Source: a virus. From it: 64,000 bases of DNA. The notes under the pieces are model-generated. The model was not told the origin of the DNA, did no database searches, and was given only the letters and a program-made list of their open reading frames with translations. Within the stretch, counting starts at the first letter, position 1. The number at the start of each line of letters is the position of its first letter. Both the position numbers and the translations under genes were made by a program. The stretch covers positions 84,929 to 148,928 of the IMG/VR virus record IMGVR_UViG_3300027754_003437; one strand, 5' to 3'. Positions 9,010 through 52,180 of the stretch are shown one piece after another.

Positions 9010-9328
9010 GTGTTTTCATACTCCATCTTTGGTAAGGCTCTGTTGCAGGCACTACTATGGCCACGTTGTCGGGATGGCAAGCAGTTCCTGTATCTGTAGG
9101 TGTAAGTCTGCGCACAGCAGATTTTAATTCAATCAGTTGACCCGCTTGCACTCGAACATTCATGGGTGCCCGAGCATAAGTTTCAGCATCAACATCAATG
9201 TATGTACCAGGTAAATCTTCCATGCTGTAGGTTATTGGCTCACCTGATTCGTCGTGGTACAAGCGCCATGACACTGATTGTGGTTCAGGCATGGCATGCA
9301 AGATTGCCCAGAATTCTTCAGCGTTCAT
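8996..9328 (-). CDS. Unknown 110-aa protein in the glycosyltransferase operon
   Basis: The start is placed at the ATG at 9328 (MNAEEFWAILHAM), overlapping the preceding gene by 11 bases; an upstream start would extend the overlap. The protein looks like a compact mixed alpha/beta fold without signal peptide or membrane segment. It has the segment SWRLYHDESGEPITYS near residues 20-35 and a Val-rich beta ending. I recall similar small proteins near glycosyltransferase genes in aquatic phages but cannot name a family. Tight coupling on both sides supports a real gene. Confidence 0.6.
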   Translation of the reverse strand: MNAEEFWAILHAMPEPQSVSWRLYHDESGEPITYSMEDLPGTYIDVDAETYARAPMNVRVQAGQLIELKSAVRRLTPTDTGTACHPDNVAIVVPATEPYQRWSMKTHESY

Positions 9329-10103: not shown

Positions 10104-10896
10104 TTATTTTCTCCAAATGTTGTTTACCCATGGCATGAAAGTCTTGATTGCGTACGGTGGTCCAACGTGGGCGCTTGTGTTGGTCTATATAATCTATTCT
10201 GTAGCAATCTTTGCTGGTTCTAGTCACAGTATGTTCAGGGGTGACACTGGCTAGATCCCAAGGCACACTTTTATATTCCAATGTTTGTCCATTTACAATA
10301 TTGAGTGCTATGCTTAGTGCATGATCATTGCGATAGGTAGAACTGGCGATTCGATACAGATCTTTATAGTGCCGCCAGTTGGCTCGAATCATTCGCATGC
10401 AGTCAAATATCAATTGAGCATGAGTGCTCTTCCGAAACATCATTACTGTGGCCCATGACATGGGCATATTGTATTCACCGTAGTGATTTAATCCTACAAA
10501 ATTATCAACTCCAGTAATGTCATAAGCATGATCATGTGCCAAGAACTCTTGATTGCTATCGAGTAAGATCTTTAACTGATCACTGGCCACCACATAGTCA
10601 GCGTCCAGTACTAGGGTTTGATCCCAAGGAGAAAGAGTATAGGCATCAGTTCTACCTGCGTTGTGCCACGTAACAGTTGCCTGATAATCCTCAAACCAAC
10701 GTGTTCCTCCCGATTCAGGTGCGGCGCTGATGACTTGATCAAAGCCCCGAAGTCGCGGATCCTCGGGCCGGGTATCAGTGACCACGGCGGTAGGTATGTT
10801 GAGGTGCCTACGAATGTTTCTAGCACTCCACTCAGCCATAGCAACGTAGTCGGTCGATTCATTGTCAAAAGCAAATATCAGTGCGCCTGTGGTCAT
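10090..10896 (-). CDS. GT8-like glycosyltransferase (268 aa)
   Basis: The N-terminus ALIFAFDNESTDYVAMA resembles the first strand and nucleotide loop of GT8-like enzymes. LVLDADYVV (D98, D100) is a canonical DxD motif preceded by a hydrophobic strand. A C-terminal HAMGK-like segment may correspond to the HxxGxxKPW motif of GT8 enzymes, but only partly. The start forms an ATGA overlap with the small gene upstream. With the neighbouring 261-aa protein it gives two GT8-like enzymes in tandem, probably adding successive sugars. Confidence 0.68.
   Translation of the reverse strand: MTTGALIFAFDNESTDYVAMAEWSARNIRRHLNIPTAVVTDTRPEDPRLRGFDQVISAAPESGGTRWFEDYQATVTWHNAGRTDAYTLSPWDQTLVLDADYVVASDQLKILLDSNQEFLAHDHAYDITGVDNFVGLNHYGEYNMPMSWATVMMFRKSTHAQLIFDCMRMIRANWRHYKDLYRIASSTYRNDHALSIALNIVNGQTLEYKSVPWDLASVTPEHTVTRTSKDCYRIDYIDQHKRPRWTTVRNQDFHAMGKQHLEKIIETC
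10110..10114 (-). promoter_or_regulatory. Ribosome binding site supporting a TTG start
   Basis: GGAGA lies 6 bases before the TTG at 10103, inside the end of the upstream gene. It decides the start of the downstream GT8-like gene, which has no suitable ATG. Confidence 0.6.
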
Positions 10897-24000: not shown

Positions 24001-27000
24001 GTGAATGTATTTCCCAGGCGAACAACATTTAATGAACGTGTGGGTATTTCGTTTGAATTTTGATCCAGTAATAAGTTTTCGCTAGTTTCGGTCACAATGC
24101 TGTCGACCACTGCACCTGGTCGAGTAACAGTCAGCCCTCCAGCCAATGGATTCAAATTGATAATGGCATTTGTGCCCCAGCCTTGTTGGCTCCAGTACAA
24201 GAATTCCGTGACCATTCTTGGCCAGTCTAGTGTGTAACCATTGGCTCTGTCGGTAAATGTTAGTCCTTGGGTTTCCAACAGTTTGCCGTAACTCAGCAAG
24301 AAATCACTCACTGCGGTTTCATTCACAAACACAAATCCATACGGAACCTGTGTCACATTGTCTGAATAAAAAGTTGGTACAAGCACAGTGATACCGCCGG
24401 CGCTGTATTCTTGCAGTTTGCCCACTGCTTGGCTTTGTAGTATTTCAAAATACGGTTGTGTTGTGCCATAACCAAATACAGCGTATCCGCCACCGTCAAC
24501 TTTTTGCACAGCCACACTGCTGTATCGTATCTGATCAAACGGCTGATTTTTGTACAACAAGATGTTGTAACTTTCGTCTGGAATCGTCAGCGTTGTGTTG
24601 GTACTGTTGGGACTAGACTTCTCAGTAACCAATTTGACATATTGTTTGTCTGAGTAACTGGCCATTCTATAGCATAATCTAACATCCAATGCCGCAAGAT
24701 CCGCAGTCAAAAGATCGGTTGAGTTGATACCTGTTTGTCTATTGTAATCTACAATCCAGTTAATGTAACTGGCTTTGCTGACGTCGTTGCCATACACTTC
24801 AATACCATTGGCATCCAATCTATACCGTTGATTATAGAGATATTGATTGTAGTCAGTATCGAACTTGTACAAATCACGATCGGCAAACAACGCAAAGAAC
24901 TCGGCCGGACGAGTAACTGCCAACACATGCATTACCGAGAAAGGATATGAACTGGAATTCCACCATGACGCTTCAACTGGGCCACCGTCGCCAATGGCCC
25001 AACTCTTTTGATATCTGGCGCTGACATTTTGATTCAATGGCACGCCGCCCACAACACTGTTTTGTGGGCTCAGCAACTCGCCTTCACCGCCTGTGGGTAT
25101 GACCGATGTCAACCCCGGTCTTGCGTAATTAGGCTTGTAATAAGGCACAACAGGATCTGCCACAAGGCCGGCTTCCAAGTCGTCCCACAACACCAAGTTG
25201 TCTGCGGTATACGGCGCTGGACCATAACGATCTTGCCACCAGGTGGGTTCAATTTCTAAGCCCAACATTTCCCAGGGTGTGTACTCGGGCTGTTGAGTAT
25301 CATAGAAGTAGCGATAGATACCGCGCCATGCGCCTAGTAAATTTTCGTTGTTGAGGCGGTTGGTAGTGCCACTATAGTTCCAGGTAAACTCATTGGTGGC
25401 ACTAAATGTTTGTTCTTTGTAATTTAGTTTGTTCCATCCGCAGTAACTCAACAAGTCCTCGGCAAAGATATTGTTAATTTCTTCAAAGGTATATCCTGTG
25501 TCACGGAACTGTCCGGGCAATACATTTTCTATTGTGAGAGGTACAGGGTTGCCATCTTGTTTGATATTGTTGTAGATTCTTGTTTCAAATTCTAGCAACA
25601 CTTGGTCTCGTATGTCTCCAAACACCGGAGTTTCACTGCCGTCGTGTCCGATAATAAATTCGCCTGTGCCATTCGAAGTTACCAGTGTTGTTATCTCTGG
25701 TTCATATTTTGGATACAGGCCCATTTTACTAGGAGTATTGGGTACAAAATTTCCATAGGTGGCACTGTATTCATTGATTGTGACTGTGTCGCCAACTGCG
25801 AGAGTCGCTGATATTGTTAGTCTTGGGCCGTCGGTGGCCACAACATATTCTAGATCTCTGGTCAATATCTCATCATTTAGATATACACAAAGTCCAAGGT
25901 AGTTGGCTGATGTGTAGTTGTACACTTGTACAGTATCAAATGTGGCTCTAGTGGTTAGACCCACAGTGTAGGTATTGCTATAACTTGTGACGCCTTGTGG
26001 GATCATGTCACTCCAGTAGAAAGGTTGAGTTTCTAATTTGCCCAGGGTGATATCTTGTATGGCTTGATCGAGAATTGTGGCAGTGGTTTTAAAAGCAATG
26101 TTGTTTTGAGTCAACACTGCATCCAGCATTTGCGCTTTGAATTTAGTATACTCACGGCTATTATATTGCAAAGATGCAAATATATTGTAACTGGGACTAC
26201 GCATGAAGTAGCCAGCCAGGGTCAACGGTGCGCTTTGTTGTAGAATTTCAAGGCCGTACGGAACAATATTGCCAAGGTCACGACTGTTGTTTGATCCGTT
26301 GATTGGTCCGGTCAAGTCCAATAAGTTTTCACAAATGGTTTCGTAATGAGTACGAATAGTACCTAATGTAAATGCAGGGCTGTTTGCATTGAGAGGATTA
26401 CTTTGTAAATTATCTGGCACCTGATAAAAACCTACTGTGCTGGTTTGATCGCTCAATGCCAATACTTCAATAATATCTGTAGGCAAGTAGGTGTTAGTCA
26501 GTGTAATAACTGTACTGTTTGTGCCAACAGTATAGGTATACGTGCTGGGATCAATAAACACACTGCCAACATAGATTTTTATCACAGGAACTGCAATTAC
26601 AGTTTGTGATGTCACTGCAATATCAAGTTTGAGACTCTGTCCTGTGTAAGTAAATTTAAACTGTTGATAGATTTGTTGTTCAACTACCGCAGTTTGCCAA
26701 CCAATTAACTTGTAATAAGTTACGCGATCTTCATACTCTCTTGCGGCGCCCGAACTGATAGGAGTTGCTGTGCTGACATTGTCAATTGTATAAGTGAATG
26801 TGTCAACGTACAGGTTGTTGTCAAACAGAATATCACCAACGTTGTTGATGTTAAGGTATTGTAAAGGAAATTGCAAAACGGTATCAAGTATGGTTGTGTC
26901 GCCCACAGCATAACTGAACAATTTTGAGCCCACAAAGTCACTGGATTGATACTTGACTCGATCGCCAAAACTCACACCATCTATATCGTATACGTTGTAT

Positions 27001-29216
27001 AACGGTGCCTGTTGTACACTGATTTTTTGTTGTGCTTCAATCCAGGCAGTTCCATCAAACCAGAATGTTAGTCCGGCAATGGTGTCACCATCTATACACA
27101 CAGTGGACTCATCTAGTTGAACTGCACCATCAGTGGCTTCGGTCAACACAATAATTGGTTGTGTAATCAACGGAGGCACAGTGTCAGGCGTTGCAAAACT
27201 TACTACATAAATTTTATCACGTACATTTAAATCTTCGTCTGCGGCAAAAATAACTCGTGAGCCTTCTACCAGGGTATAACCGTCAGTTGTGTAACCAGTA
27301 GATCCCTCCACATTTGAAAACGCATCAGTTTCAGTAAAGTCAATGATATCCACCGGTGCTTTACCACGGGTTCCCATGTTCCATAGTCGTATGCCTGGAC
27401 GAAATTGTATGATTGGTCTCTTGGCACGGAAATTGTTGTCAATGTCTGCGGCTGTGTTATTATATGTGGCTGTGGCATTGATCACATCGATATGAAACCA
27501 ACGATTGCTTCTTGTCCAGGCATTTAGATCCTTGCTGGCGCGACTGATGGTTAGATAATCTATATCTGCTGGCTCCACAGCAATGGTACTGTCAGTATAA
27601 TCAGTTGCATAACTTTCGTACACTGCAAAATTTTCAACAGGCAACAATTCAATTGCAGTACCTACTCCACTTACATAATATTCATGATTGCTAACCGCAA
27701 TTGCATTCATAGTACCTGTGCCAGTTTGTAGTGTCACTGCTGGACCATTGGGTACTGCACTCACAGTAAATTTCAGTCCGTTGACCGCAATGGATCTCAC
27801 ATAGTAAGTTGTGCCTGGTTCGAGACCTCCAAGGGTTGTGGCTAAAAACACAACTCCTTGCCCAACATACAAGTAGGTTGCATTGTAATAAGTGATATAG
27901 TTTGTGCCGGCTTCTGTAGCAGTACATTGGAAAGTGCTTGTGCCTGATCCATAACTAGCAGGCACAACATCTCCAGTGAATCGTACTTTGAGACCATTGG
28001 TAAACGCTACTCCATTGGGACTGGTGTATGTTTCTTGACCAATGATACTGTCAACATCGAGCGTGCTACTGTTGCCCGGCTCAACCAAAAGAATACGACC
28101 AAAAATTTCTGAATTGGTTCCAGACTGATAGTACAATGTATCTTGTACCGCACTCAACAATGGAATACTGCGAATAACGCCAGCCGGATCTTTGTACCAT
28201 TGAGTATTACTGTAAACTGTGCCGTAACTGGTGATCCATTTTTCCAGGCTGTTGATTGTTGCAATTTCTGCCAGTTGTAGGTAAACCACACTGTCAACAG
28301 TGACATAGGTAATTTGATATTTTTGTGTGAGTGCAGGGTTGTCAATAAAAATCAACGTGCGATTGTTTAAATTGGTTACACCATCGATGCCGCCTGTTGC
28401 AACAACAAAATCAATCAATGGTTGTCCGTTAATATCATTGTAAGCCAATTCAGTTACCAAATCAATGGTGCCAATACTGGTTAGATTGTAATAAAAACTT
28501 TGTGCATCCTTTAGTGGAGCATTAAAAATCACAGTACCTGATGTTTCACCGTTGTTGGCCACTCCGTAAACATCTCTACTGCTAATGTTTGGAGTGGCAG
28601 GTATTGTACCTGATATACCTGGTGCTGACTGTATCCAAAATTCATCTGATACTTGGAACGTGTAACTGCCGCCACGCACCAATTCAATCACAGGATTGTT
28701 GCCATTGACGCCTGAAAAATTGTAAGCACTGTTGTTGGTGGTTACTACAAAATTGTCTGTGGTGGAAATACCAGCAGATGCCACATCAACTGCGGCTAGA
28801 CCGCCAGGAATCCAATAGTATTGGCTGAAATTTATAAATGCATCAAAATCAACAAACGGATCCCAGGTATAATATTCACTTGAATATAATCTGTCTGGGC
28901 GGCCACCGTTGCCGCCTTGGAAACTTACTGCATCATTCAATCCAGGATAGGTAATGGCATTTTTGATAGTATCAGTATCAGGCACCAGACTGACCACGCC
29001 TGGCTCAAGTTGATAGTCTGCCCGTGTTTTTGTGGGTTCAACCACATACTTGTCGTTGGGGTTTACACCTGGGCCAACTGTACGACCAATAAAACCTTGT
29101 GTTTTTCTAAAGTTAGGCTCTTGGATCAGTTGATCAAGAGTGGCGGCCAAAAATTGTTTGTTGGCATCGGTCTGAAAAATTTCAGGAAGAAAATCTACGC
29201 TACGTGTGTTGGCCAT
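15027..29216 (-). CDS. Giant baseplate/tail-fibre protein (4729 aa), gp7-region
   Basis: It lies directly after gp6, whose stop it overlaps by one base, in the slot of T4 gp7-gp10, but is over four times the size of T4 gp7 (about 1030 aa). Residues 1-150 are probably the attachment domain. Seven FG-GAP-like units lie between residues 2220 and 3005, for example FGYSVAMSLDERWMYIGAPG, the number in an integrin-type seven-bladed propeller. Two copies of a TYTIxTxGTTxxTAIGA module occur near residues 2470 and 4180, and GSGY...GSGYGQTP beta repeats near 3700-3765. A segment near 3500 with EFVSDYIQEVKPYH recalls cyanophage baseplate proteins. It may combine wedge and long-fibre roles. Confidence 0.75.
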   Translation of the reverse strand: MANTRSVDFLPEIFQTDANKQFLAATLDQLIQEPNFRKTQGFIGRTVGPGVNPNDKYVVEPTKTRADYQLEPGVVSLVPDTDTIKNAITYPGLNDAVSFQGGNGGRPDRLYSSEYYTWDPFVDFDAFINFSQYYWIPGGLAAVDVASAGISTTDNFVVTTNNSAYNFSGVNGNNPVIELVRGGSYTFQVSDEFWIQSAPGISGTIPATPNISSRDVYGVANNGETSGTVIFNAPLKDAQSFYYNLTSIGTIDLVTELAYNDINGQPLIDFVVATGGIDGVTNLNNRTLIFIDNPALTQKYQITYVTVDSVVYLQLAEIATINSLEKWITSYGTVYSNTQWYKDPAGVIRSIPLLSAVQDTLYYQSGTNSEIFGRILLVEPGNSSTLDVDSIIGQETYTSPNGVAFTNGLKVRFTGDVVPASYGSGTSTFQCTATEAGTNYITYYNATYLYVGQGVVFLATTLGGLEPGTTYYVRSIAVNGLKFTVSAVPNGPAVTLQTGTGTMNAIAVSNHEYYVSGVGTAIELLPVENFAVYESYATDYTDSTIAVEPADIDYLTISRASKDLNAWTRSNRWFHIDVINATATYNNTAADIDNNFRAKRPIIQFRPGIRLWNMGTRGKAPVDIIDFTETDAFSNVEGSTGYTTDGYTLVEGSRVIFAADEDLNVRDKIYVVSFATPDTVPPLITQPIIVLTEATDGAVQLDESTVCIDGDTIAGLTFWFDGTAWIEAQQKISVQQAPLYNVYDIDGVSFGDRVKYQSSDFVGSKLFSYAVGDTTILDTVLQFPLQYLNINNVGDILFDNNLYVDTFTYTIDNVSTATPISSGAAREYEDRVTYYKLIGWQTAVVEQQIYQQFKFTYTGQSLKLDIAVTSQTVIAVPVIKIYVGSVFIDPSTYTYTVGTNSTVITLTNTYLPTDIIEVLALSDQTSTVGFYQVPDNLQSNPLNANSPAFTLGTIRTHYETICENLLDLTGPINGSNNSRDLGNIVPYGLEILQQSAPLTLAGYFMRSPSYNIFASLQYNSREYTKFKAQMLDAVLTQNNIAFKTTATILDQAIQDITLGKLETQPFYWSDMIPQGVTSYSNTYTVGLTTRATFDTVQVYNYTSANYLGLCVYLNDEILTRDLEYVVATDGPRLTISATLAVGDTVTINEYSATYGNFVPNTPSKMGLYPKYEPEITTLVTSNGTGEFIIGHDGSETPVFGDIRDQVLLEFETRIYNNIKQDGNPVPLTIENVLPGQFRDTGYTFEEINNIFAEDLLSYCGWNKLNYKEQTFSATNEFTWNYSGTTNRLNNENLLGAWRGIYRYFYDTQQPEYTPWEMLGLEIEPTWWQDRYGPAPYTADNLVLWDDLEAGLVADPVVPYYKPNYARPGLTSVIPTGGEGELLSPQNSVVGGVPLNQNVSARYQKSWAIGDGGPVEASWWNSSSYPFSVMHVLAVTRPAEFFALFADRDLYKFDTDYNQYLYNQRYRLDANGIEVYGNDVSKASYINWIVDYNRQTGINSTDLLTADLAALDVRLCYRMASYSDKQYVKLVTEKSSPNSTNTTLTIPDESYNILLYKNQPFDQIRYSSVAVQKVDGGGYAVFGYGTTQPYFEILQSQAVGKLQEYSAGGITVLVPTFYSDNVTQVPYGFVFVNETAVSDFLLSYGKLLETQGLTFTDRANGYTLDWPRMVTEFLYWSQQGWGTNAIINLNPLAGGLTVTRPGAVVDSIVTETSENLLLDQNSNEIPTRSLNVVRLGNTFTIQPLTTQSISYINLRFTNYEHMMVLNNKSVFGDLIYNPVTGARQSRLTLVAVTTSDWNGSVDTPGFILNQDNVQEWTGLRTYSKGEIVKYKNVYWSALTIVQPSVKFDFNTWTQSDYTQIELGLLPNLANKADQLANSYNINAANIETDNDLLSYGLIGFKPRQYLAALNLDDVSQVNVYRQFLGTKGTRLATDLFKSANLGKEAADYTIYENWAVQRATYGANANRSFVELRLNRALLSANPSLVQVVVPQQASAADQQIYLTDVWRSSYKLTSTDILPTTTELPTDIGLPTAGYVSLDDTDITVFDITNTESLAANIDSIQVGTSIWVAKINDYDWNIYRAQAVPGQIQHVCDNLNGTSRVIFNDQHGLTTGDKLIIKFFDSEINGVYQVLSVPNLDTVNIAFAFTSNRAVANGTGIGFTLQTMRVAQASDVDSLPYALNILPGAKVWVDDNGDGLWEVLQKNDVFSSIVALNPVLLDAGEQYGASVAQARNKLAAFVGSPNYGFYTGTSKGAIYVYVKSYSDQYTPVSPLGTGDAILTLDATGVRGYGNAIDFGNQSWAVAGASASLGSGSQANNGYACVIYRDPTLGVPGSIPFGQWQLLTQPAAYGTLLTGAGEFGYSVAMSLDERWMYIGAPGLNSVHAYGYVDWQNQVIKTIADGVTTAYTINDTIQINNDYQLKVTLNGQIQTVGTDYTISGSFGTVTFASAPGNTIAGSFVPGATYTILTLGTTDFTAIGASSNTVGVEFVATGAGSGTGTAVAQLLIEFARYNSFQIPYSAATYNLAGTSSSLPGLFTATNIYSFSIEVNGALLRPNIDYTFAGTTVTFTGSYISSDIIIVRANGYFEYTNTLTVAGLGASDRFGHSISCTTDGRQVLVGTPYITIDGNVEAGQVYVFDRNVQRFICNSNSSSTNFTVLGSAPTAPVSVIVNNEFYINQTDSVIDAPNSFTVSGNTITILGDLKVGDVVEIETNQFNLLQTVSQNTVANFSNFGQAVEICDNNCSLYVGEPQSSQQIFKGGVVERFVNQSRVYGTITATVANPTFTVGNTIRVNNMDVVLTGTTVASLANAINSTVPNVLATVSTAGYLTINVKNSAAAAPFNKVQVAPGSVGTAFTTLGFDTFAWTQLITSPYPVEYAAFGSAISVNDNAINLVVGAPRGTLYLETIFDDGTTYFDAGSTIFFSVIVQSGAIYTFDYLPSSTLTVTNPGKFVFGQQINNSQVQSYDTFGAAVNYTSGVLMAGAPKNDSGDSTANFGAVFVFENPTGSPAWSVAEIEQPTVDIRLLNSVFFYDRITSARTQFLDFINPLQGKILGAARANIDYVGAVDPAAYNTGPSNLKGTTWFADHVGEIWWDISTVRFIDPNQDSVVYASRRWAQLFPGSEVDVYQWIQSTTPPSAYTGEGTPLNTASYTVNTNLSQDGTFATYYYFWVRGITVTATQLGKTLPASTVASYIADPRASGIAYLAPINASTVALYNSADYIEASDTIINIEYDREYTNDNVHVEYELIPQDRADGFLSDSLYRKLQDSLCGVDTFGNKVPDPNLNPAERYGVQFRPRQSMFVNRFAALKNYLKRANTVLAQYPISESRSFNLLNSSAPIPPQTEIVDSVSVTNWNLQVANLEILGFQTPFWSNTSGSIPLGYKYLVTTDSSNNGLWTVYTVELSDTQANTRVLKLTQVQGYNTPDYWSYINWYRPGYNASTKVVAEVATYSALTTLILPVGSSVKVTANAQGKFEIYLLTDLGFERVALQDGTIEFSAELYDYALGRFGFDVEVFDAQYFDQEPVIETRKIIQAINEELLIDDLAIQRNKALVLMFNFVLSEFSAPEWLVKTSLIDVDHRIRQLIPYQNYIIDNQEFVSDYIQEVKPYHVSIREFNLKYTGADEFFGDLTDFDLPAYYNTTLEIAKFTSPILLPYNHGNAFNSPTNTQSDLPATSTLWSTWPYNQWYSNYLLILDSVEIIDGGSGYTEPPVVIITGDATEPAEATAVISSLGRVVAVNVTNAGSGYGQTPTITFDGGNGTEARAYAIMTNDLVRSFRTVIKYDRFQYFSDVLTWSPNGTYLSGMLVRYDDRVWSATPTDSTAVVGPEFNLEDWTVVPARTLTGVDRTMGYYVPGVNQPGLELPLLIDGVDYPGVQVYGDYFLRDPLSIDATYSSEFTDTTLGELPTDINVDGGQFIGLYEGHSPEELINGAEFDTLDFRVYTRPGADWNRDGHGFQWSIIRYTYDPAIETAYSWAGTVEHPVQVLISNITTGLDLALDIDYTVDWINQTVSLLTLTSGDQFQINVFELGGGSQLYRANYIGGDIGETVVVPVNTAEIVSIAVFVNGENVDSVTWQPYVDSANWNILDSYGKLDIVNNSGIYYRALQNVPVGINITNVLYWFAFVPTLESLVDFGTDYGATDGIAMVIFGTNTVDAGYFVIGKSYTITTVGTTNWTAIGAASGTVGVSFVATGAGSGTGQASTAYSWSTPQVQYQVADANMVSNKIIVLTNSVQGSNSANAVITRNGLRLRPPAGIEWIGDDSSVSFGLPQRGNYSQSAINANSDVNVWIDNILQVQNVGSTQGNYAVTAWTGNNTPGRQVVFFTPPPSGARILIAVNTQADYAIVGNQAQISATVNLNDVFAVTTWNDTSQQWPLTLVFQGPVTEGLTLTEGYDTTVYDAASVSDTPGSYDYSVGTTISVNNFYLERSLNEASRLWATLNGNRLFEGIDYTVEGDYLIYSGGVIGTTDIMVIEEYTNSVVPDAMAFRIFQDMRGVQATYRITEATTTTLAQDLSSTASIAYVTNAGQLSEPDLDPVRKTGIFGVVTIDGERVMYRARDIVANVISGLMRGTAGTAAADHSAGTDIYDTGRGNLLPSQFQDYIVSDTSTGDDSTTTFYAPSILFEDFLDSSSETPAIEVYVGGQRQYAYSDTTAESRYRYFVTDYDPLAVEFIVDTNVFPPLLPPAAGVEVTILVRQGVTWYAPGDGTASDGIALQDTQTQAARFLRGL
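20210..22560 (-). repeat. Seven FG-GAP-like units (putative beta-propeller)
   Basis: Seven segments of the form (F/Y)G.(A/S)(V/I)......(V/I)G(A/S/T/E)P or near variants, most followed by a G(A/Q/G)(V/I)(Y/F) strand, start near residues 2223, 2286, 2359, 2598, 2728, 2880 and 2966 of the giant protein. Examples are FGHSISCTTDGRQVLVGTPY and FGAAVNYTSGVLMAGAPKND. FG-GAP repeats form the blades of integrin alpha propellers. Unit 2 is weaker (VAGAS). Insertions separate units 3 and 4. Confidence 0.6.
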
Positions 29217-44492: not shown

Positions 44493-45509
44493 ATGACAAA
44501 TCTATTTCGTAAAGCCGCGGTCTTCACAGACATTCACTTTGGCTTGAAAAGTAACAGCACTCAACACAACGAGGACTGCCTAAATTTTGTCAAGTGGGCC
44601 ACTGCCAAGGCCCGGGCTGAAGGCTGTGAGACCTGCATGTTCCTGGGCGACTGGCACAACAACCGTGCCAGCCTAAACATTGTCACGCTGAACTACAGCC
44701 TACAAGCACTGGAGCACATGAATGATAATTTTGAAAACGTGTATTTCATTCCTGGTAATCATGATTTGTATTATCGAGACAAGCGCGACATACAAAGTGT
44801 GGAATGGGCAAAGCATCTCCCTAATGTACAGATATGTAACGATTGGTTTAGCCGTGGTGATGTTGTCATTGCTCCTTGGCTTGTAGCCGATGATCACAAG
44901 CGTATTCCTAAACTAAAGGGCAAGTACATGTTTGGGCACTTTGAATTGCCTGGATATCTAATGAATGCCATGGTGGAGATGCCAGATCACGGTGAAGTAC
45001 GCAGAGAAGACTTCGGAAACTTTGAACATGTGTTTACTGGACACTTTCACAAACGACAGACCAAAAAAAACATCACCTACATTGGCAATTGCTTTCCGCA
45101 CAACTATGCCGATGCCGGCGACGACGATCGTGGCATGATGATTCTGGAATGGGGCAAAGAGCCAGAGTTTCATGCCTGGCCCGATCAACCAAGATATCGT
45201 GTGCTGGGCCTGGCCAGCATTATCGACAACGCACCCAAATTATTAGCAACCGGCATGCATGTTCGAGTGCAGTTAGACATTGAAATTTCATACGAAGAAG
45301 CCAACTTCATCAAAGAAAAGTATATCAAAGAATATGGCCTGAGAGAGATGGCTTTGATACCCAACAAGAACAGTTCAGTAGACACAGACATGGCGCCGGG
45401 CGAAGTCAAGTTTGAATCAGTGGATCAAATTGTCACAGATCAGATTACCAATATTGAGTCAGAATTCTACGACAACAAATTACTGTTGAAGATTTATCAG
45501 ACTTTATGA
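44493..45509 (+). CDS. 47: Recombination nuclease subunit gp47 (338 aa, Mre11/SbcD-like)
   Basis: gp47 is the calcineurin-type phosphoesterase partner of gp46; the complex resects DNA ends to start recombination and recombination-dependent replication. All metal-binding motifs are visible: FTDIHFG (D13, H15), FLGDWHNNR, FIPGNHD, GHFE and FTGHFHKRQ. Length matches T4 gp47 (339 aa). It follows gp55 by 12 bases. Its stop overlaps the start of a radical SAM gene as ATGA, so that gene sits between gp47 and gp46, which are close neighbours in T4. Confidence 0.93.
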   Translation: MTNLFRKAAVFTDIHFGLKSNSTQHNEDCLNFVKWATAKARAEGCETCMFLGDWHNNRASLNIVTLNYSLQALEHMNDNFENVYFIPGNHDLYYRDKRDIQSVEWAKHLPNVQICNDWFSRGDVVIAPWLVADDHKRIPKLKGKYMFGHFELPGYLMNAMVEMPDHGEVRREDFGNFEHVFTGHFHKRQTKKNITYIGNCFPHNYADAGDDDRGMMILEWGKEPEFHAWPDQPRYRVLGLASIIDNAPKLLATGMHVRVQLDIEISYEEANFIKEKYIKEYGLREMALIPNKNSSVDTDMAPGEVKFESVDQIVTDQITNIESEFYDNKLLLKIYQTL

Positions 45510-46387
45510 TCTTATCAGATACCACATGGTTACAAGTAGAAAACTCAACCAAGTGCAATGCTTGGTGTCCTGGGTGCGGTCGTAATCAAGGTGGGTACAA
45601 ACTTACTCCTGATCTGGTAGTCGAAGACCTGGCCACAGAAAGATTCGAAGAAGTTTTAAAAAAACTTCCCAACTTAGAAACTATACAATTTAGCGGTACC
45701 TACGGAGATACCATGGCTGCTAATAATGTGTTAGAGCACATTGATCTAGCAATAAGGTACGCAGGCAAAATTCAAATTCACACACATGGCGGCATACGTT
45801 CCACTCAATGGTGGACTGACTTAGGAACTCTACTAAAAGATTTGAATCACGATGTGTGGTTTTGTTTAGATGGACTCAAAGGAGTGCATGAAATATATCG
45901 TCAGGGCACAGACTTTGACAAAACCGTTGCCAATGCACAAGCGTTTATTTCTGCTGGCGGTTATGCCACATGGCAGTTTATTCCATGGGCACACAACGAA
46001 CATCAAATAAAAGATTGTATGAGATTAAGTCAGCAGATGGGTTTTAAAAAATTTAAATTTGTAACCAGTGTACGGGAAACTATAAGTGCCCGTCACTGGC
46101 AAACTGGACAACCAATAGAATTTCGACCATGGAGCAGAAGCAATATTACTAATACATATCATTTAAATCCCAAACGCGATAGTATTAGATTGTCTGATTG
46201 CAGACATCTAACAAAAAAAACTGTGTATCTAAACGCCAACGGAAAAATAAGTTCTTGCTGTTATCTAAATGTGCATCGGACTGCTGACGCAGATGTATTA
46301 CCCGATATCGAGAGCGAGATTCTCTCTCAAGCCCATCCATTGTGCTTGACCAATTGCGGCAATGGTGTTAAACTGGTTCATCAATGA
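45506..46387 (+). CDS. Radical SAM/SPASM-like protein between gp47 and gp46 (293 aa)
   Basis: CNAWCPGC at C17, C21 and C24 is the radical SAM cluster motif. In place of GGEP the protein has FSGTYGDT (YGD at 66-68). A SPASM-like C-terminus has cysteines 232, 251, 252, 280 and 284 around VYLNANGKISSCCYLN and CLTNCG, which should bind an auxiliary Fe-S cluster. ATGA overlaps at both ends couple it to gp47 and gp46. Relatives with the same C(x)YGD pattern occur at 48131 and 50002. The substrate is unknown. Confidence 0.85.
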   Translation: MILSDTTWLQVENSTKCNAWCPGCGRNQGGYKLTPDLVVEDLATERFEEVLKKLPNLETIQFSGTYGDTMAANNVLEHIDLAIRYAGKIQIHTHGGIRSTQWWTDLGTLLKDLNHDVWFCLDGLKGVHEIYRQGTDFDKTVANAQAFISAGGYATWQFIPWAHNEHQIKDCMRLSQQMGFKKFKFVTSVRETISARHWQTGQPIEFRPWSRSNITNTYHLNPKRDSIRLSDCRHLTKKTVYLNANGKISSCCYLNVHRTADADVLPDIESEILSQAHPLCLTNCGNGVKLVHQ

Positions 46388-48147
46388 TTCAAATTAAAAA
46401 TTTAACTGTTAAAAACTTCATGAGTGTGGGTGCGGCCACTCAAGGCATCGACTTTGACCGTAGTGATCTCACGCTTGTGCTGGGCGAGAATTTGGACTTG
46501 GGCGGCGACGGCTCACGCAACGGCACAGGCAAGACCACAATCATCAATGCTCTAAGTTATGCCTTGTATGGACAAGCACTGAGTAACATCCGCAAAGACA
46601 ATCTGGTAAACAAGACCAATGGCAAGAACATGTTGGTCAGTTTGGACTTTGCAGTCAATGCACAAGAGTACAGAATTGAACGTGGACGCAAACCCAATGT
46701 GCTACGTTTCTATATCAACAACGAACACAAGGCCGCTGAAGACGAAGCACAAGGCGACAGTCGTGAAACACAAGATGCCATTGAGCGTGTGATGAACATG
46801 AGTCATGACATGTTCCGACATGTGCTGGCCTTGAACACTTATACAGAACCTTTCTTAAGTTTGAAGGCCAATGATCAGCGAACTATCATTGAGCAGTTGC
46901 TGGGTATTACCTTGTTGAGTGAACGTGCTGATGCAATCAAAGAACTCAATCGCCAGACCAAAGATGCTATTCAGGCAGAAGAGTTTCGTATCCGTGCTGT
47001 GCAAGAAGCCAACAAACGCATTGAAGAACAAATTGAAAGTCTGCGCAAGCGCCAACGTCTTTGGACAGCCAAACGTGACGAAGATGTGGGCAAACTACAA
47101 CAGGCCATTGCGGATCTTGAACACATTGACATTGATGCTGAAGTACAGGCACACAGAGATCTAGAAGCATTTCATGTGAAGAAAAAAGCCCTAGACGATG
47201 CCAGTCGTTACATTCGTCAAATTGATTCTGATGATGCCAAACTAAATCGACTGCTAGACAAACTCAAAACAGAAATTGAGGCCCTGGATGCTCACCGGTG
47301 TCACTCATGCGGTCAGGACTTGCACGATGACAAGCAGGACGAGTTGAAACAGACCAAGCAGGCCTTGGTACAAGAAACAGCACTACAACTCCTGGCCAAT
47401 GACACACAACGCCAAGGGCATGAAGATACCGTTATCCAGATTGGTACATTAGGCACAGCACCCATGGTGTTTTACGATTCGCTTGAGCAAGCATTGAATC
47501 ATCGTAATACTGTGGAAACCCTACGCAAAGATTTGACCTCACGATCTGCTGATGCAGATCCTTACGAAGAACAAATTGCAGACATGCAAGGACAGGCCTT
47601 GCAAGTTGTGTCATATGACACACTGAACGAACTTACTCGTTTGCAAGATCACCAGGACTTCTTGCTCAAACTGTTGACATCAAAAGACAGTTTTGTACGC
47701 AAGAAGATCATTGATCAAAACTTGAGTTATCTAAACGCCCGTCTCACACACTATTTGGATCGTATTGGCTTGCCACACACTGTGAAGTTTCAAAACGATT
47801 TGACTGTGAGCATTGAAGAACTGGGTCGTGAATTAGATTTTGATAATTTGAGTCGTGGTGAACGTAACAGATTGATACTAAGTATGAGTTGGGCGTTCCG
47901 TGATGTTTGGGAAAGTTTGTACTCACCAATCAACTTGCTGTTCATTGATGAACTGATTGACAACGGGCTAGACACACAAGGTGTAGAGAACGCACTGGCT
48001 TTGTTGAAAAAGATGAGCAGAGAGCGTCACAAGTCAATCTGGCTTGTTTCACACAGAGATGAACTGGCTGGACGTGTGGAGAACATTCTCAAGGTAATCA
48101 AAGAGAACGGTTTCACTAGTTATAACACGGATGTTGAACTTGCGTGA
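46384..48147 (+). CDS. 46: Recombination ATPase subunit gp46 (587 aa, Rad50/SbcC-like)
   Basis: gp46 is the SMC-like ATPase that works with gp47. Walker A is GSRNGTGKT (residues 43-51). A long central coiled coil leads to a zinc hook CHSCG (C306, C309) and back. The C-terminus has the ABC signature LSRGERNRLILSMSW and a Walker B LLFIDELIDNGLD. Length is close to T4 gp46 (560 aa). Its start overlaps the inserted radical SAM gene as ATGA and its stop overlaps the next radical SAM gene by 17 bases. Confidence 0.94.
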   Translation: MIQIKNLTVKNFMSVGAATQGIDFDRSDLTLVLGENLDLGGDGSRNGTGKTTIINALSYALYGQALSNIRKDNLVNKTNGKNMLVSLDFAVNAQEYRIERGRKPNVLRFYINNEHKAAEDEAQGDSRETQDAIERVMNMSHDMFRHVLALNTYTEPFLSLKANDQRTIIEQLLGITLLSERADAIKELNRQTKDAIQAEEFRIRAVQEANKRIEEQIESLRKRQRLWTAKRDEDVGKLQQAIADLEHIDIDAEVQAHRDLEAFHVKKKALDDASRYIRQIDSDDAKLNRLLDKLKTEIEALDAHRCHSCGQDLHDDKQDELKQTKQALVQETALQLLANDTQRQGHEDTVIQIGTLGTAPMVFYDSLEQALNHRNTVETLRKDLTSRSADADPYEEQIADMQGQALQVVSYDTLNELTRLQDHQDFLLKLLTSKDSFVRKKIIDQNLSYLNARLTHYLDRIGLPHTVKFQNDLTVSIEELGRELDFDNLSRGERNRLILSMSWAFRDVWESLYSPINLLFIDELIDNGLDTQGVENALALLKKMSRERHKSIWLVSHRDELAGRVENILKVIKENGFTSYNTDVELA

Positions 48148-48985
48148 TGTAAAAGTATTACACCTAGAACCCACAGACGTGTGCCAAGCGGCATGTGCGT
48201 TGTGTGCTAGAGAAACTGACAAAAACTTTAGAAAAGATCGTCAGCATCATCTCGCTATGAATCAAATACTACGAGTGTTTGGCAAAGAAAAAATTCAACA
48301 ACTAGACAAAATGTTCATGTGTGGCAATTATGGTGATCCTGCCGCTGGTAAGCATACCTTAGATATCTTTCAAGAATTTAGAAAGATTAATCCCAACATT
48401 GTGCTAGGCATGAATACCAATGGTGGTATGCAAACTACATTTTGGTGGCACGAACTAGCAAAAATATTAAATCAGCCACAGGACTATGTGGTATTTTCAA
48501 TTGATGGCCTAGAGTCCACCAATGCTACATACCGTCAAAATGTAGTTTGGAACAAACTAATGAGCAATGCTCGATCGTTTGTGGAAGCAGGCGGTTCTGC
48601 ACATTGGGACATGTTGGTATATCGCCACAATCAACACGAGGTTGATGCTTGTGAACAACTGGCCAGAGATTTAGGATTCTCTTGGTTCCGAGCCAAAGTT
48701 TCAAAACGTGGATTTACTGAATCGCTACAGTTTCCCACAGGATGGCAATCAATAGAAAAGCAGGCCACTGGTATCAGTTGTCATGCGTTACGAGAGCAAA
48801 GTGTTTACATAGATGCACAAGGCCGTCTCGGACCTTGCTGTTGGTTGGGCGCAAGACAATTAGATTTTGTTACAGATGTAGATACTATTCCCACACAGGA
48901 TCCTGTGTGCTTGTCTGCATGTGGGCAAACTGCCTTGGGCACAGCATTTGATCAACAGTGGCAAAGAGAGGTAGCATTATGTTAG
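48131..48985 (+). CDS. Radical SAM/SPASM-like protein (284 aa)
   Basis: The cluster motif CQAACALC is at C18, C22 and C25, and the GGEP position holds MCGNYGDP (YGDP at 67-70). The SPASM-like end has C217, C236, C237, C260 and C264 in the same order as the 293-aa protein (VYIDAQGRLGPCCW, CLSACG). The middle has VVFSIDGLESTNATYRQN, shared in type with the 572-aa protein (FNIDGLETTNWLYRRN). It overlaps gp46 by 17 bases. It is therefore a paralogue of the genes on either side of it. Confidence 0.86.
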   Translation: MLNLRDVKVLHLEPTDVCQAACALCARETDKNFRKDRQHHLAMNQILRVFGKEKIQQLDKMFMCGNYGDPAAGKHTLDIFQEFRKINPNIVLGMNTNGGMQTTFWWHELAKILNQPQDYVVFSIDGLESTNATYRQNVVWNKLMSNARSFVEAGGSAHWDMLVYRHNQHEVDACEQLARDLGFSWFRAKVSKRGFTESLQFPTGWQSIEKQATGISCHALREQSVYIDAQGRLGPCCWLGARQLDFVTDVDTIPTQDPVCLSACGQTALGTAFDQQWQREVALC

Positions 48986-49019
48986 TTGATGCTATATATA
49001 ATATTGTTGTTTGACTTTG

Positions 49020-50012
49020 ATGAATCAATTTACTAAAATTACTCCAACAGAACATTACTTTTTAGTAAGTTGGATCCAACACATCCGATGCAATTATGAT
49101 TGCATGTATTGCCCTGAGAATAGACATAATGATTATTCACCGTTGCCCGATTTTGATACCATGTGTCAACATTGGAAACAAGTTTTTGAAAAAACTAAAC
49201 ATCGTAATCTACCTTACGGCATTAGTTTCAGCGGTGGCGAAGCAACAATAAACAAAGATTTTATTTCATTCATTGAATGGTTATCTGTCAACTACGGTCA
49301 AAATATTGCCAAAATAGGAATTACAACCAATGGCAGCGCATCCATATCATACTATCTGAGACTGTTTGATAAACTTACATTTATCAGTGTAAGCACACAT
49401 TCTGAACACATGTCCAATGACTTTTTAAACAAAATAAAAATTTTGAATACCTACGCAAAAGAACATAACAAAACTGCATTTGTAAATGTCATGCAAGAAT
49501 ACTGGGCAACAGAACAAATTAAAAAAATAGTCGATTTTTGTAAAAAACATGACATTCCATACTCAATTAGCAAAATTAACTATAACTTACCCGGAAGTCG
49601 TACGTGGCCAATTTTTAAAATTGACAAACAATACAAAGACCGCCGAGATTTAGAACTCACACAAGAGTTGATAAATTATAGCAACCAAGAAATAGATCCG
49701 TTTGTAGATCTCAAAGACAACAAATATTACAATATCAAGATAACATCAATAGATAACTCAACCAACTTGATATTTGCATCCAGTTTACGATATTTAAATT
49801 TACATCATTTTAAGGGATGGAAATGTCATGCTGGACTTGACAGAATTTTTATAGCACCCGATACTTCAGTTTACAGTGCCGAATGTGAAAATGATTTCAT
49901 GGGAAAACTTGATGACAACTCATTCAAACTGTTTGACGGTCCGCAAGTGTGCAAACGGGAAACCTGCACTAACAATCCCGATGATCTTCAGGTGACAAAA
50001 TATGCTGTCTAA
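49020..50012 (+). CDS. Radical SAM protein of a different subfamily (330 aa)
   Basis: The ATG at 49020 is used; a TTG three codons earlier is possible. The cluster motif CNYDCMYC is at C24, C28 and C31, and the SAM motif is FSGGEAT (GGEA at 72-75), closer to the canonical form than in the adjacent genes. The C-terminal end has cysteines at 269, 289, 311 and 316 and an AECENDFMGKL segment, a SPASM-like auxiliary cluster. The gene is A/T-rich and Lys/Asn-rich compared with its neighbours, which suggests separate acquisition. It overlaps the next gene by 11 bases. Confidence 0.85.
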   Translation: MNQFTKITPTEHYFLVSWIQHIRCNYDCMYCPENRHNDYSPLPDFDTMCQHWKQVFEKTKHRNLPYGISFSGGEATINKDFISFIEWLSVNYGQNIAKIGITTNGSASISYYLRLFDKLTFISVSTHSEHMSNDFLNKIKILNTYAKEHNKTAFVNVMQEYWATEQIKKIVDFCKKHDIPYSISKINYNLPGSRTWPIFKIDKQYKDRRDLELTQELINYSNQEIDPFVDLKDNKYYNIKITSIDNSTNLIFASSLRYLNLHHFKGWKCHAGLDRIFIAPDTSVYSAECENDFMGKLDDNSFKLFDGPQVCKRETCTNNPDDLQVTKYAV

Positions 50013-51720
50013 CATTTGGTCATATCTTTCAATTGATGAATATCAAATTGAAGTGACCACTTACTGTAATGCCGCATGTCCTCAATGTCCTCGCAACAAC
50101 AACGGGTCAGGTGTCAATCCATACCTGACTCTGGAGCACTTGCCCAGAGCAGTGATTGATTCTGCTTTTGATAGTGAGTTGTGCAATCGTCTTCGACAAG
50201 TGTTCTTTTGTGGCAGTTACGGTGATCCCATAATGCATCCAGAGTTCCTGGATATCTTGAGAGACTTTAGACGCAAGTGTCCCACTCTCTGGTTGTATGT
50301 TCATACCAATGGCGGTGCCCACAATACAGAATACTGGCAAGAGATGGCCAAAATCATTGGTGGCTACGGTCAAGTTGACTTCAACATCGATGGTCTTGAA
50401 ACTACCAATTGGCTCTACAGAAGAAACACAGACTTCAACAAAATCATTGCCAATGCCACTGCATATATCAATGCTGGTGGCCGTGCTGTTTGGAACTTTA
50501 TTGTGTTTGAACACAATCAAGATCAAGTTGAACAAGCACAAGAACTAAGCAAAAAAATTGGGTTTCGAGATTTTAAATCACGTGCTACTGGTAGATTTTT
50601 AAATCATCAAACCATGGACACATTTAATGAGTGGCCTGTTCAAACAAAATCTGGACAAGTTGAATATGTGTTAACTCCTACCACATTAGACAAATACAAG
50701 AATCGAAGCATTGAGATATTGCCCAATCTCAAATCACAATACTCAGACATGCAAGAGTATTTTGCCAATACAGAAATATGTTGCGATTCTTTGGCAGGTA
50801 GTAAGGTAGCAATCAATGCCAGTGGACTTGTGTTACCTTGTAATATGTTAAATCACAATCTAACTGATGCTAGATTTCGTGATCAATCAGTATTGCCTTG
50901 CAGTAACAATCTCAGTGCTGTCGATGGTAAAAATCAAGTGCAAGAGTTTGTTGATCGGCACGGCGCTGATAACTTGAACATTCATCATCGATCACTAGAG
51001 CAAGTGTTTGCCAACTCTTTTTGGGTAGACCTTGCAGACAGTTGGAAGTATAATACATTTCCTGAACGAATGTTTGAATGCGCAATGACTTGCGGTAAAC
51101 AATTTACCAAGGTATGGGATCAAACCAAGATGACAAACACATTTTTTATCACTGGCGGCAATCGAGGACTAGGACAACATCTCAAAGAAAAATTCAACGG
51201 TACCAGCATCAGCCGAGCACAAGGCTACGATATCACAAAACATGTCAAAGAAATTGCTGAAATAAGTTTGGACTTTGATGTGTTCGTCAACAATGCATTT
51301 GACGGGCCGCCACAAGAAGACTGGGCAAACTTTGCGCAAGCACAGGTGTACATGGCTGTGTACGATGCCTGGAAAGCAGCCGGCAAAACAGGACATATTT
51401 TTAACATTGGTTCAACTGGTAGCAAAAGCATTGTTGCTCCTGAGCCTAGATTTGAAACCTACAGAGTCAGCAAGGCCGCACTTGAACACGCCAGCCGACA
51501 AGGCACACAGGCATTCAAACAAAACATTGTGCCATTCAAAACTACATTAATCACTCTTGACAGGCTTGACACAGAACTCAGTCGTGGCCGCCCAAACTGG
51601 ACTGGCAACGGCATCAATCTAACTGATATCAGCAATTTTATACAATACGCTACCACAGTGAGTAAAAACACAGTGGTAGAAGAGGCAACTTTTTACGTCA
51701 ATTTCGATCATAAGGCATAA
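50002..51720 (+). CDS. Radical SAM/SPASM fused to a short-chain dehydrogenase (572 aa)
   Basis: Residues 1-370 are a radical SAM/SPASM enzyme: CNAACPQC at C22, C26 and C29, CGSYGDP at 70-76, FNIDGLETTNWLYRRN, and a cysteine-rich end with CC at 260-261, C280, C360 and C364. Residues 377-572 are a short-chain dehydrogenase-like Rossmann domain: FFITGGNRGLG (TGxxxGxG at 384-391), VNNAF (429-433), a candidate catalytic Ser in FNIGSTGS and YRVSK with Y487 and K491. It would use NAD(P). No stop separates them; an internal ATG at codon 377 could also give a separate dehydrogenase. The fusion suggests radical oxidation followed by reduction, or epimerisation, of one substrate. Confidence 0.86.
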   Translation: MLSNIWSYLSIDEYQIEVTTYCNAACPQCPRNNNGSGVNPYLTLEHLPRAVIDSAFDSELCNRLRQVFFCGSYGDPIMHPEFLDILRDFRRKCPTLWLYVHTNGGAHNTEYWQEMAKIIGGYGQVDFNIDGLETTNWLYRRNTDFNKIIANATAYINAGGRAVWNFIVFEHNQDQVEQAQELSKKIGFRDFKSRATGRFLNHQTMDTFNEWPVQTKSGQVEYVLTPTTLDKYKNRSIEILPNLKSQYSDMQEYFANTEICCDSLAGSKVAINASGLVLPCNMLNHNLTDARFRDQSVLPCSNNLSAVDGKNQVQEFVDRHGADNLNIHHRSLEQVFANSFWVDLADSWKYNTFPERMFECAMTCGKQFTKVWDQTKMTNTFFITGGNRGLGQHLKEKFNGTSISRAQGYDITKHVKEIAEISLDFDVFVNNAFDGPPQEDWANFAQAQVYMAVYDAWKAAGKTGHIFNIGSTGSKSIVAPEPRFETYRVSKAALEHASRQGTQAFKQNIVPFKTTLITLDRLDTELSRGRPNWTGNGINLTDISNFIQYATTVSKNTVVEEATFYVNFDHKA

Positions 51721-51751: not shown

Positions 51752-52180
51752 ATGACATGGCTATATCAAGATACCCCAATTGAGACGTTGCCCGAAGAGT
51801 GTGTTGGATTTGTTTACTTGATCACAAATAATCTCACTGGACGCAAGTACATAGGCAAAAAATTAGCAAAATTTAGCAAGACAACCACAAAAACAGTCAA
51901 ACTCAAAAACGGCACAAAGAAGCGGAAAAAGATACGCTCCAAGATCGATAGTGATTGGAGAGAGTACTACGGGTCAAGCCCAGAATTAACCGCAGACGTA
52001 ATCAAACTAGGCACCGAAAACTTCACCAGAGAAATACTTTACTATTGTAACTCCAAGTCAGAATGCTCATACATTGAGGCTAGAGAACAATTTTCAAGAA
52101 GAGTATTAGAGTCAAAAGATTATTACAACGGCCATATTCAAGTTCGTGTGCATGGCTCACACATCATAAACAAAATTTAA
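51752..52180 (+). CDS. GIY-YIG endonuclease-like protein (142 aa)
   Basis: The GIY-YIG core is VGFVYLITNNLTGRKYIGKK (residues 18-37), with a basic loop of Lys-rich sequence, then SDWREYYGSS and later CNSKSECSYIEAREQF, which should hold the catalytic Glu. I recognise it as a free-standing GIY-YIG protein common in T4-like aquatic phages. Its role may be homing, or repair-like nicking; target unknown. It ends before a 463-base region full of hairpins and is the last gene of the rightward gp55-gp46 operon. Confidence 0.8.
   Translation: MTWLYQDTPIETLPEECVGFVYLITNNLTGRKYIGKKLAKFSKTTTKTVKLKNGTKKRKKIRSKIDSDWREYYGSSPELTADVIKLGTENFTREILYYCNSKSECSYIEAREQFSRRVLESKDYYNGHIQVRVHGSHIINKI

What the first reader, a model, noticed from the sequence alone, without database searches (positions are those of the whole stretch)
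50002..51720. Fusion of a radical SAM/SPASM enzyme with a short-chain dehydrogenase
One 572-codon frame holds both a complete radical SAM/SPASM half and a Rossmann half with TGxxxGxG and YxxxK. I know of no such fusion in phages. Combining radical oxidation with NAD(P)-dependent reduction suggests stepwise change at one carbon, for instance inversion or deoxygenation of a sugar or side chain. The dehydrogenase half is short (about 196 residues), so it may be minimal or partly degenerate.
Basis: partly seen in the sequence, partly recalled or inferred. Interest (0 to 1): 0.78.

Follow-up and report, generated by a model that had tools for sequence, protein, structure and literature searches.

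The report
Phage fusion of two redox enzymes
An uncultivated T4-like phage carries one protein that joins a radical-chemistry enzyme to a small NADPH-type reductase; the same two enzymes sit side by side in well over a hundred other phage sequences and in some predatory bacteria, which suggests (but does not prove) that they act in sequence on one molecule, probably a sugar.

Summary
The fusion is real. ORF 50002-51720 is open for 572 codons and recurs in >30 phage contigs from several lineages. Both halves are under strong purifying selection (dN/dS about 0.04-0.09), and the SDR catalytic and nucleotide-binding residues are invariant in 57 homologues, so the SDR half is minimal (196 aa), not decayed. 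One correction: the first half is a Twitch-type radical SAM enzyme (one four-Cys auxiliary cluster), not a full seven-Cys SPASM. The Rosetta-stone test is passed: searches with rSAM halves alone found the SDR directly downstream in 118 of 118 scorable close relatives: 28 fused, 90 separate. In every separate pair start and stop overlap as ATGA, so one inserted or deleted base toggles fused and separate forms; the window keeps that ATG at codon 377. Some fused lineages have lost the internal start, so there the single polypeptide must be the product. Homologous pairs occur in Bdellovibrionota genomes, once inside a polysaccharide cluster. Best explanation: the rSAM half makes a ketone on a sugar and the SDR half reduces it (deoxygenation or inversion), as AprD4/AprD3 do in apramycin synthesis. 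Substrate and chemistry are inferred, not shown. New variant of a known kind.

The parts
50002..51720 (+). Whole fused ORF, 572 aa: Twitch-type radical SAM enzyme + minimal short-chain dehydrogenase/reductase (SDR)
   Evidence: AlphaFold2 pLDDT 88.5, pTM 0.70
50047..50514 (+). Radical SAM core (PF04055 match, residues 16-171)
   Evidence: E 2.2e-9
50065..50088 (+). Radical SAM cluster motif C22-x3-C26-x2-C29 (CNAACPQC)
   Evidence: 100% conserved in 68 rows of alignment A1
50782..51093 (+). Twitch-type auxiliary cluster region: C261, C280 (GLVLPC), C360, C364 (CAMTC)
   Evidence: all four 100% conserved; no further conserved Cys in this region, so not a seven-Cys SPASM
51094..51150 (+). Junction: invariant KVWDQ tail of the rSAM half, then a short linker into SDR strand 1; no separate linker domain
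   Evidence: dip in model confidence at residues 361-380
51130..51133 (+). Relic (or residual) ATGA start/stop overlap: ATG = codon 377, the SDR start in the separate-gene form; here the TGA is out of frame
   Evidence: ATGA at the rSAM stop in 93/93 split pairs and 90/90; kept in the window
51130..51717 (+). SDR half, 196 aa, complete Rossmann core, about 45 residues shorter than typical SDRs
51151..51174 (+). Nucleotide-binding motif TGGNRGLG (TGxxxGxG)
   Evidence: T, first G, and G-L-G invariant in 57 homologues
51211..51216 (+). S-R after strand 2; invariant Arg, suggests NADP(H) preference
   Evidence: R29 invariant, S28 >=90%; NADP preference is from general SDR knowledge
51289..51300 (+). 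NNAF (classical NNAG position)
   Evidence: invariant
51412..51474 (+). Catalytic Ser471, Tyr487, Lys491 (YRVSK)
   Evidence: S95/Y111/K115 of the SDR invariant in 57 homologues
51752..52180 (+). Small GIY-YIG-like nuclease gene that follows the pair in 111 of 126 loci (context, not part of the enzyme)
   Evidence: homing endonuclease phrog_7363 1.3e-12; GIY-YIG motif read by eye; best PHROG match carries the name NAD synthetase
46384..48147 (+). T4 gp46-like (SbcC) gene, upstream boundary of the slot that holds the pair in most relatives (context)
   Evidence: (phrog_77 3.8e-98)

Best explanation
A two-step tailoring enzyme that works on one carbon region of a sugar (nucleotide sugar or glycan) during infection. 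Step 1: the Twitch-type radical SAM half uses a 5'-deoxyadenosyl radical to turn an alcohol or vicinal diol into a ketone, either by dehydrogenation with the auxiliary cluster taking the electron (as in BtrN) or by diol dehydration (as in AprD4). Step 2: the SDR half, with NADPH, reduces that ketone, giving an inverted or a deoxy sugar. Fusion, or strict ATGA translational coupling in the separate form, keeps the two activities close to 1:1 and close together, useful if the keto intermediate is labile. Shown: the fusion, intact cofactor and catalytic residues in both halves, obligate linkage of the two genes, toggling by one base. Inferred: sugar substrate, ketone intermediate, reductive direction, benefit of 1:1 supply. 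The likely purpose (changing a host surface glycan or a virion glycan) is a guess from context.
For: Obligate linkage: 33 fused and 93 split pairs; with rSAM halves alone as queries, 28 fused, 90 split, no close relative without the SDR. All split pairs overlap as ATGA, most with GGAGG just upstream. Purifying selection on both halves and invariant active sites. Structure: the rSAM half's best PDB match is BlsE, which acts on a sugar nucleoside (7vob, E 2.4e-10, TM 0.53); the SDR half matches classical SDRs, among them gluconate and polyol dehydrogenases. [quoted passage not shown] Context: a homologous overlapping pair (25%/28% identity) in a Bdellovibrionota genome lies beside a flippase, an NDP-sugar epimerase, two GT4 glycosyltransferases and a PhyH protein; another lies near a GT2 gene and several rSAM genes (L213); a distant rSAM relative in Pelagibacter phage Mosig stands in a cluster annotated with a UDP-Ara4N aminotransferase and a carbamoyltransferase. 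The phage has a second rSAM cluster with a protein whose homologue lies in the bacterial rSAM-SDR cluster L217 and weakly matches GT2.
Against: No substrate, product or cofactor has been measured. TM-scores about 0.5 to BlsE, SuiB, SkfB and MoaA are superfamily level only, so sugar and peptide substrates are not separated by fold. No AprD4-, BlsE- or BtrN-named family appears among the NCBIfam hits; the best is the tungsten-cofactor maturase TIGR04317 at 50 bits against a cut-off of 380. The SDR and rSAM trees disagree (6 against 2 changes of state) and one pair (L065) recombined at the junction, so SDRs are exchangeable between rSAMs, which argues against very tight co-adaptation. The Asn of the classical SDR tetrad is not evident.
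Confidence: 0.5

Rival explanations
1. Peptide or protein side-chain modification: the rSAM half acts like SuiB/SkfB-type maturases on a peptide or a phage structural protein, and the SDR reduces or oxidises the product.
For: SuiB and SkfB are among the next best structural matches of the rSAM half; dehydrogenases accompany the rSAM-made redox peptide mycofactocin in other bacteria (PMC5264612, title listed).
Against: No seven-Cys SPASM; no room for a precursor peptide gene beside the ORF: the upstream gene overlaps it and only 31 bases separate it from the next gene; bacterial pair in a polysaccharide cluster.
Confidence: 0.2
2. DNA or nucleotide hypermodification: the pair works on a modified base or nucleotide, as some phage rSAM enzymes do.
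For: Phage setting; in the marine fused lineage L029-L034 a Mom-like DNA modification gene and a nucleotidyltransferase/mannose-6-phosphate isomerase gene lie just upstream.
Against: Mom is limited to that lineage; a bacterial pair lies in a polysaccharide cluster. Hypermodification enzymes were not searched for.
Confidence: 0.1
3. The halves work in one pathway but on different molecules or steps; the fusion is a neutral one-base accident at the ATGA overlap.
For: The one-base toggle makes fusion easy; trees of the two halves disagree and a recombination point lies at the junction.
Against: Fused forms persist over deep lineages and some have lost the internal start; the SDR is next to the rSAM in all scorable close relatives.
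Confidence: 0.17
4. Artefact or decay: frameshift error, or a non-functional SDR remnant.
For: The SDR is short and below Pfam's cut-off.
Against: Same junction in many independent contigs; dN/dS 0.05-0.07 and invariant active site in the SDR half.
Confidence: 0.02

Closest known systems
AprD4 / AprD3 (apramycin C3'-deoxygenation; radical SAM diol dehydratase plus NADPH-dependent reductase; PMC5461906)
   Same: Two partners: a radical SAM enzyme and an NADPH-type reductase, serving one sugar position in sequence.
   Different: AprD4 and AprD3 are described as separate partner enzymes of antibiotic synthesis; here they are fused or ATGA-coupled, in phages, with a minimal 196-aa SDR. No family-level sequence match was seen; substrate unknown.
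BlsE (cytosylglucuronate decarboxylase, PDB 7vob; PMC3715490)
   Same: Best structural match of the rSAM half; a second cluster is proposed near its C-terminus; acts on a sugar nucleoside.
   Different: 16% identity, TM 0.53; CxxxCxMC and GGEP motifs there against CNAACPQC and GSYGDP here; a decarboxylase with no SDR partner mentioned in what I read.
Twitch radical SAM enzymes such as BtrN (dehydrogenase) and MoaA
   Same: Radical SAM core plus one auxiliary cluster in a C-terminal Twitch domain (here C261, GX4C280, C360x3C364).
   Different: No close sequence relation; MoaA is a structural match at rank 13; BtrN did not appear in the top 50. BtrN chemistry is from general knowledge.
Classical SDRs of the FabG/gluconate 5-dehydrogenase type
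   Same: TGxxxGxG, NNA, Ser, YxxxK, Rossmann fold, Arg after strand 2.
   Different: About 45 residues shorter; invariant blocks of its own (FDGPP.E.W..F.Q and RLDT.LSR.R..WTGNG); classical tetrad Asn not evident.
Radical SAM cassettes of pelagimyophages and other marine T4-like phages (PMC7029224, PMC5332604)
   Same: T4-like aquatic phages with many radical SAM genes and glycosyltransferases (12 rSAM genes in one TARA genome; 12 PF04055 hits here).
   Different: No rSAM-SDR pair or fusion is described in the passages I read.

Membership tests
Radical SAM superfamily | CxxxCxxC cluster motif in a partial TIM barrel | tested here: met
   PF04055 2.2e-9 above cut-off; C22/C26/C29 100% conserved; model and Foldseek
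SPASM subfamily | Seven-Cys C-terminal domain binding two auxiliary clusters; PF13186 match | tested here: not met
   No PF13186 match; only four conserved auxiliary Cys
Twitch subfamily | Shortened C-terminal domain with one auxiliary cluster | tested here: met
   C261-x18-C280 (GX4C) ... C360-x3-C364, all invariant; the cluster itself was not observed
Classical SDR | TGxxxGxG, NNAG-like, Ser, YxxxK and Rossmann fold | tested here: met
   Pfam score below gathering cut-off
Classical SDR | Catalytic tetrad Asn in helix alpha-4 | tested here: inconclusive
   phmmer alignment places a gap there; N67 or invariant Q70 may take the place
AprD4/AprD3-type deoxygenation pair | Radical SAM enzyme and NADPH reductase as partners | tested here: inconclusive
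   partnership of the two genes: 118/118 scorable relatives adjacent or fused; NADPH use is predicted only
AprD4/AprD3-type deoxygenation pair | Diol dehydration of a sugar followed by ketone reduction | not testable with these tools
   needs enzymology
AprD4/AprD3-type deoxygenation pair | Sequence membership of the AprD4 or AprD3 families | tested here: inconclusive
   no such family among NCBIfam hits; AprD4/AprD3 sequences were not at hand for a direct comparison
TIGR04317 tungsten-cofactor oxidoreductase maturase | score above the curated cut-off of 380 bits | tested here: not met
   50.2 bits
RiPP maturase system | Adjacent precursor peptide gene | tested here: not met
   upstream gene overlaps the ORF; 31-base gap to the next gene; distant precursors not searched
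Phage thymidine hypermodification | dedicated kinase and pyrophosphorylase genes in the genome | not tested
   no search made

The most novel reading that the evidence does not exclude
A single-polypeptide radical deoxygenase/epimerase that channels a keto sugar from a Twitch radical SAM site to an NADPH site, spread by phages and shared with predatory bacteria, whose fused and separate forms interconvert by one base at an ATGA overlap; the first radical SAM-SDR fusion assigned a sugar-editing role in viruses.
Probability: 0.35. Interest if true: 0.75.

Novelty: new variant of a known kind. Interest (0 to 1): 0.58.

Why it matters
Radical SAM genes are abundant but unexplained in aquatic T4-like phages. 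A radical SAM enzyme locked to a reductase narrows the chemistry sharply: the product of the first half should be something an NADPH reductase can reduce. That gives a concrete, testable entry to what these phages do with radical SAM enzymes, a candidate natural bifunctional catalyst for sugar deoxygenation or inversion, and a clean case of gene fusion and fission by one base at a start/stop overlap.

Tried and rejected
Sequencing or assembly frameshift: rejected by many independent contigs with the same junction. Degenerate SDR: rejected. Internal start as the only real product: not general, since some fused lineages have no start there; in the window it cannot be excluded that some free SDR is also made. 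Full SPASM: rejected. The cassette of a 500-aa radical SAM protein with a 171-aa protein between gp46 and the pair looked like a dedicated partner, but it is absent, inverted or replaced by other cassettes in many loci, so I did not include it in the mechanism; the 171-aa protein matches nothing in Pfam or PHROGs. Isolate phages: no SDR match at all and only weak rSAM matches. Plasmids: a 29% rSAM homologue in Nocardia farcinica pNF1 in what looks like a small-molecule cluster (two rSAMs, methyltransferases, phosphoketolase), without an SDR beside it. PDB sequence searches with the whole-protein profile and the rSAM half found no relative. No paper describing such a fusion was found. No BFVD hit listed convincingly spans both halves.

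Full report
Observation. The ORF at 50002-51720 is open and reads 572 residues. It lies in a 148,928-base IMG/VR virus record with T4-like genes around it: late sigma factor, gp47- and gp46-like nuclease subunits, baseplate hub, tape measure, portal, prohead protease and major capsid. Residues 16-171 match Radical_SAM (2.2e-9); the SDR half matches SDR models weakly, but its predicted structure is confidently a classical SDR fold.

Anatomy. In 117 aligned homologues (fused proteins and separate halves) the radical SAM motif C22/C26/C29, C70 and four further cysteines, C261, C280, C360 and C364, are invariant. The rSAM half ends in a KVWDQ conserved in all but a few distant relatives and passes through about ten variable residues into SDR strand 1. 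In the SDR half T8, G9, G13, L14, G15, R29, N54, N55, A56, S95, Y111 and K115 are invariant in 57 homologues, and the Rossmann core is complete; the roughly 45 residues missing against typical SDRs appear to be loop regions (inference from the element list and Foldseek lengths). An invariant Arg after strand 2 suggests NADP(H) (general SDR knowledge). The Asn of the classical tetrad is not evident. dN/dS is 0.04-0.085 for the rSAM half and 0.05-0.07 for the SDR half. The SDR half is therefore minimal and functional-looking, not degenerate.

Rosetta-stone test. Searches of IMG/VR with the whole protein and with the SDR half gave 126 distinct loci where both genes can be read: 33 fused, 93 separate. 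Because those queries contained the SDR, I repeated the search with rSAM halves alone. Among 120 loci, 28 were fused, 90 separate and directly adjacent, one was cut by the contig end, and one distant relative (30% identity, L255) had an SDR-like stretch further off. Some contigs occur in both searches. So in all 118 scorable close relatives the SDR follows the rSAM.

Junction. In every separate pair the rSAM stop and SDR start overlap as ATGA (93 of 93; 90 of 90), usually with a GGAGG in the tail VWDQGGSxR just upstream. Some separate pairs have VWDQTR or VWDQTK tails without that GGAGG. The window has VWDQTK-ATGA with one more base, so the TGA falls out of frame and translation runs on: fused and separate forms differ by one base. 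All window-type fused proteins keep the ATG. In deeper fused lineages it is GTG (L166, L167), GTT (L168, L170, L171) or gone (L186), so in the latter two groups the fused polypeptide must be the product. The rSAM tree places fused proteins in two or three clades. Rooting on a distant bacterial sequence is unsure, so I cannot say whether fusion or fission came first. The SDR tree disagrees with the rSAM tree, and in L065 the rSAM resembles one phage (mostly 84-98% DNA identity per 100 bases) and the SDR the window's clade, with the switch at the junction: the halves are exchanged by recombination yet stay together.

Surroundings. The pair sits between a gp46-like gene and a GIY-YIG-like nuclease in most relatives. 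The slot just upstream varies: often a 500-aa radical SAM protein with a 171-aa protein, in either orientation, or other cassettes. The phage itself has 12 PF04055 matches, in line with reports of T4-like marine viruses with many radical SAM genes (PMC5332604, PMC7029224).

Outside these phages. No isolate phage holds the SDR. One genome in GTDB matched strictly, a Bacteriovoracales MAG, with rSAM (44%) and SDR (46%) separated by about 500 bases. A profile search of 291 genomes of its phylum gave nine SDR matches, of which six have a radical SAM gene next to or very near the SDR (my reading of the ORF lists). In G098 the overlapping pair (25% and 28% identity to the window halves) lies beside a polysaccharide flippase, an NDP-sugar epimerase, two GT4 glycosyltransferases and a PhyH protein. 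In G236 it lies beside a GT2 gene and further rSAM genes, one of which has its own short SDR. Cluster L217 holds a homologue (31%, 4e-28), weakly GT2-like, of a protein from the window's other radical SAM cluster. Two phage SDRs that have no such rSAM beside them (L187, L193) carry Gly in place of the catalytic Ser (my alignment by eye); these are two related cases only.

Mechanism. Foldseek's best match for the rSAM half is BlsE, an enzyme acting on a sugar nucleoside, followed by peptide maturases and MoaA. These are superfamily-level similarities and do not fix the substrate. The closest working analogue is AprD4 with AprD3, a radical SAM diol dehydratase and its NADPH-dependent reductase that together remove a sugar hydroxyl (PMC5461906). 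I therefore propose that the rSAM half makes a ketone on a sugar, by dehydrogenation or diol dehydration, and the SDR half reduces it. Co-function is strongly supported (my estimate 0.9). A sugar substrate rests on context (about 0.6). Deoxygenation against inversion is undecided.

Verdict. A fused or coupled radical SAM-SDR system in phages is a new variant of a known kind of enzyme partnership.

Noticed in passing
45506-46387, 48131-48985, 49011-50012: Three further radical SAM genes lie directly upstream, one of them between the gp47- and gp46-like nuclease genes; with the fused gene this makes four radical SAM genes in a recombination-gene slot.
   Followed up: partly
215-10896 (minus strand): Second cluster with four radical SAM genes (two with SPASM matches) and glycosyltransferase-like proteins without Pfam matches; the protein at 8083-9009 has a 31% homologue inside a bacterial rSAM-SDR cluster (L217).
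   Followed up: partly
L038:2994-4496, L124:2407-2922 and relatives: A mobile-looking two-gene cassette (500-aa radical SAM protein plus 171-aa protein of unknown family) occurs in about 70 loci upstream of the pair, sometimes inverted or duplicated.
   Followed up: partly
15027-29216: A 4729-residue ORF on the minus strand, a giant protein of a T4-like phage.
   Followed up: no
L187:4986-5576, L193:5001-5582: SDRs of this family with no cognate rSAM beside them; both have Gly in place of the catalytic Ser and YNANK instead of YRVSK. In L193 the SDR sits alone between gp46 and the GIY-YIG-like gene.
   Followed up: partly
L255:3013-5448: A distant relative of the rSAM half is fused to a second, SPASM-like radical SAM domain (811 aa); an SDR-like frame starts further downstream.
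   Followed up: no
L029-L034, upstream of the fused gene: This marine fused lineage has a Mom-like DNA modification gene and a nucleotidyltransferase/mannose-6-phosphate isomerase fusion just upstream.
   Followed up: no
L218:14034-17057 (Nocardia farcinica pNF1): A 29% rSAM homologue over the whole rSAM half lies in a plasmid cluster with a second rSAM, two methyltransferases, phosphoketolase and nucleoside hydrolase, without an SDR beside it.
   Followed up: partly
L196:2754-5938: In another phage-like contig a different rSAM and short SDR overlap by about 26 bases and are followed by a cupin-like gene and two genes that look like glycosyltransferases by eye.
   Followed up: no
L156:5675-5995: In the Bacteriovoracales MAG a 106-aa ORF between rSAM and SDR repeats a stretch of the rSAM C-terminal tail (WLDQNLEK), as if part of the tail had been duplicated.
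   Followed up: no
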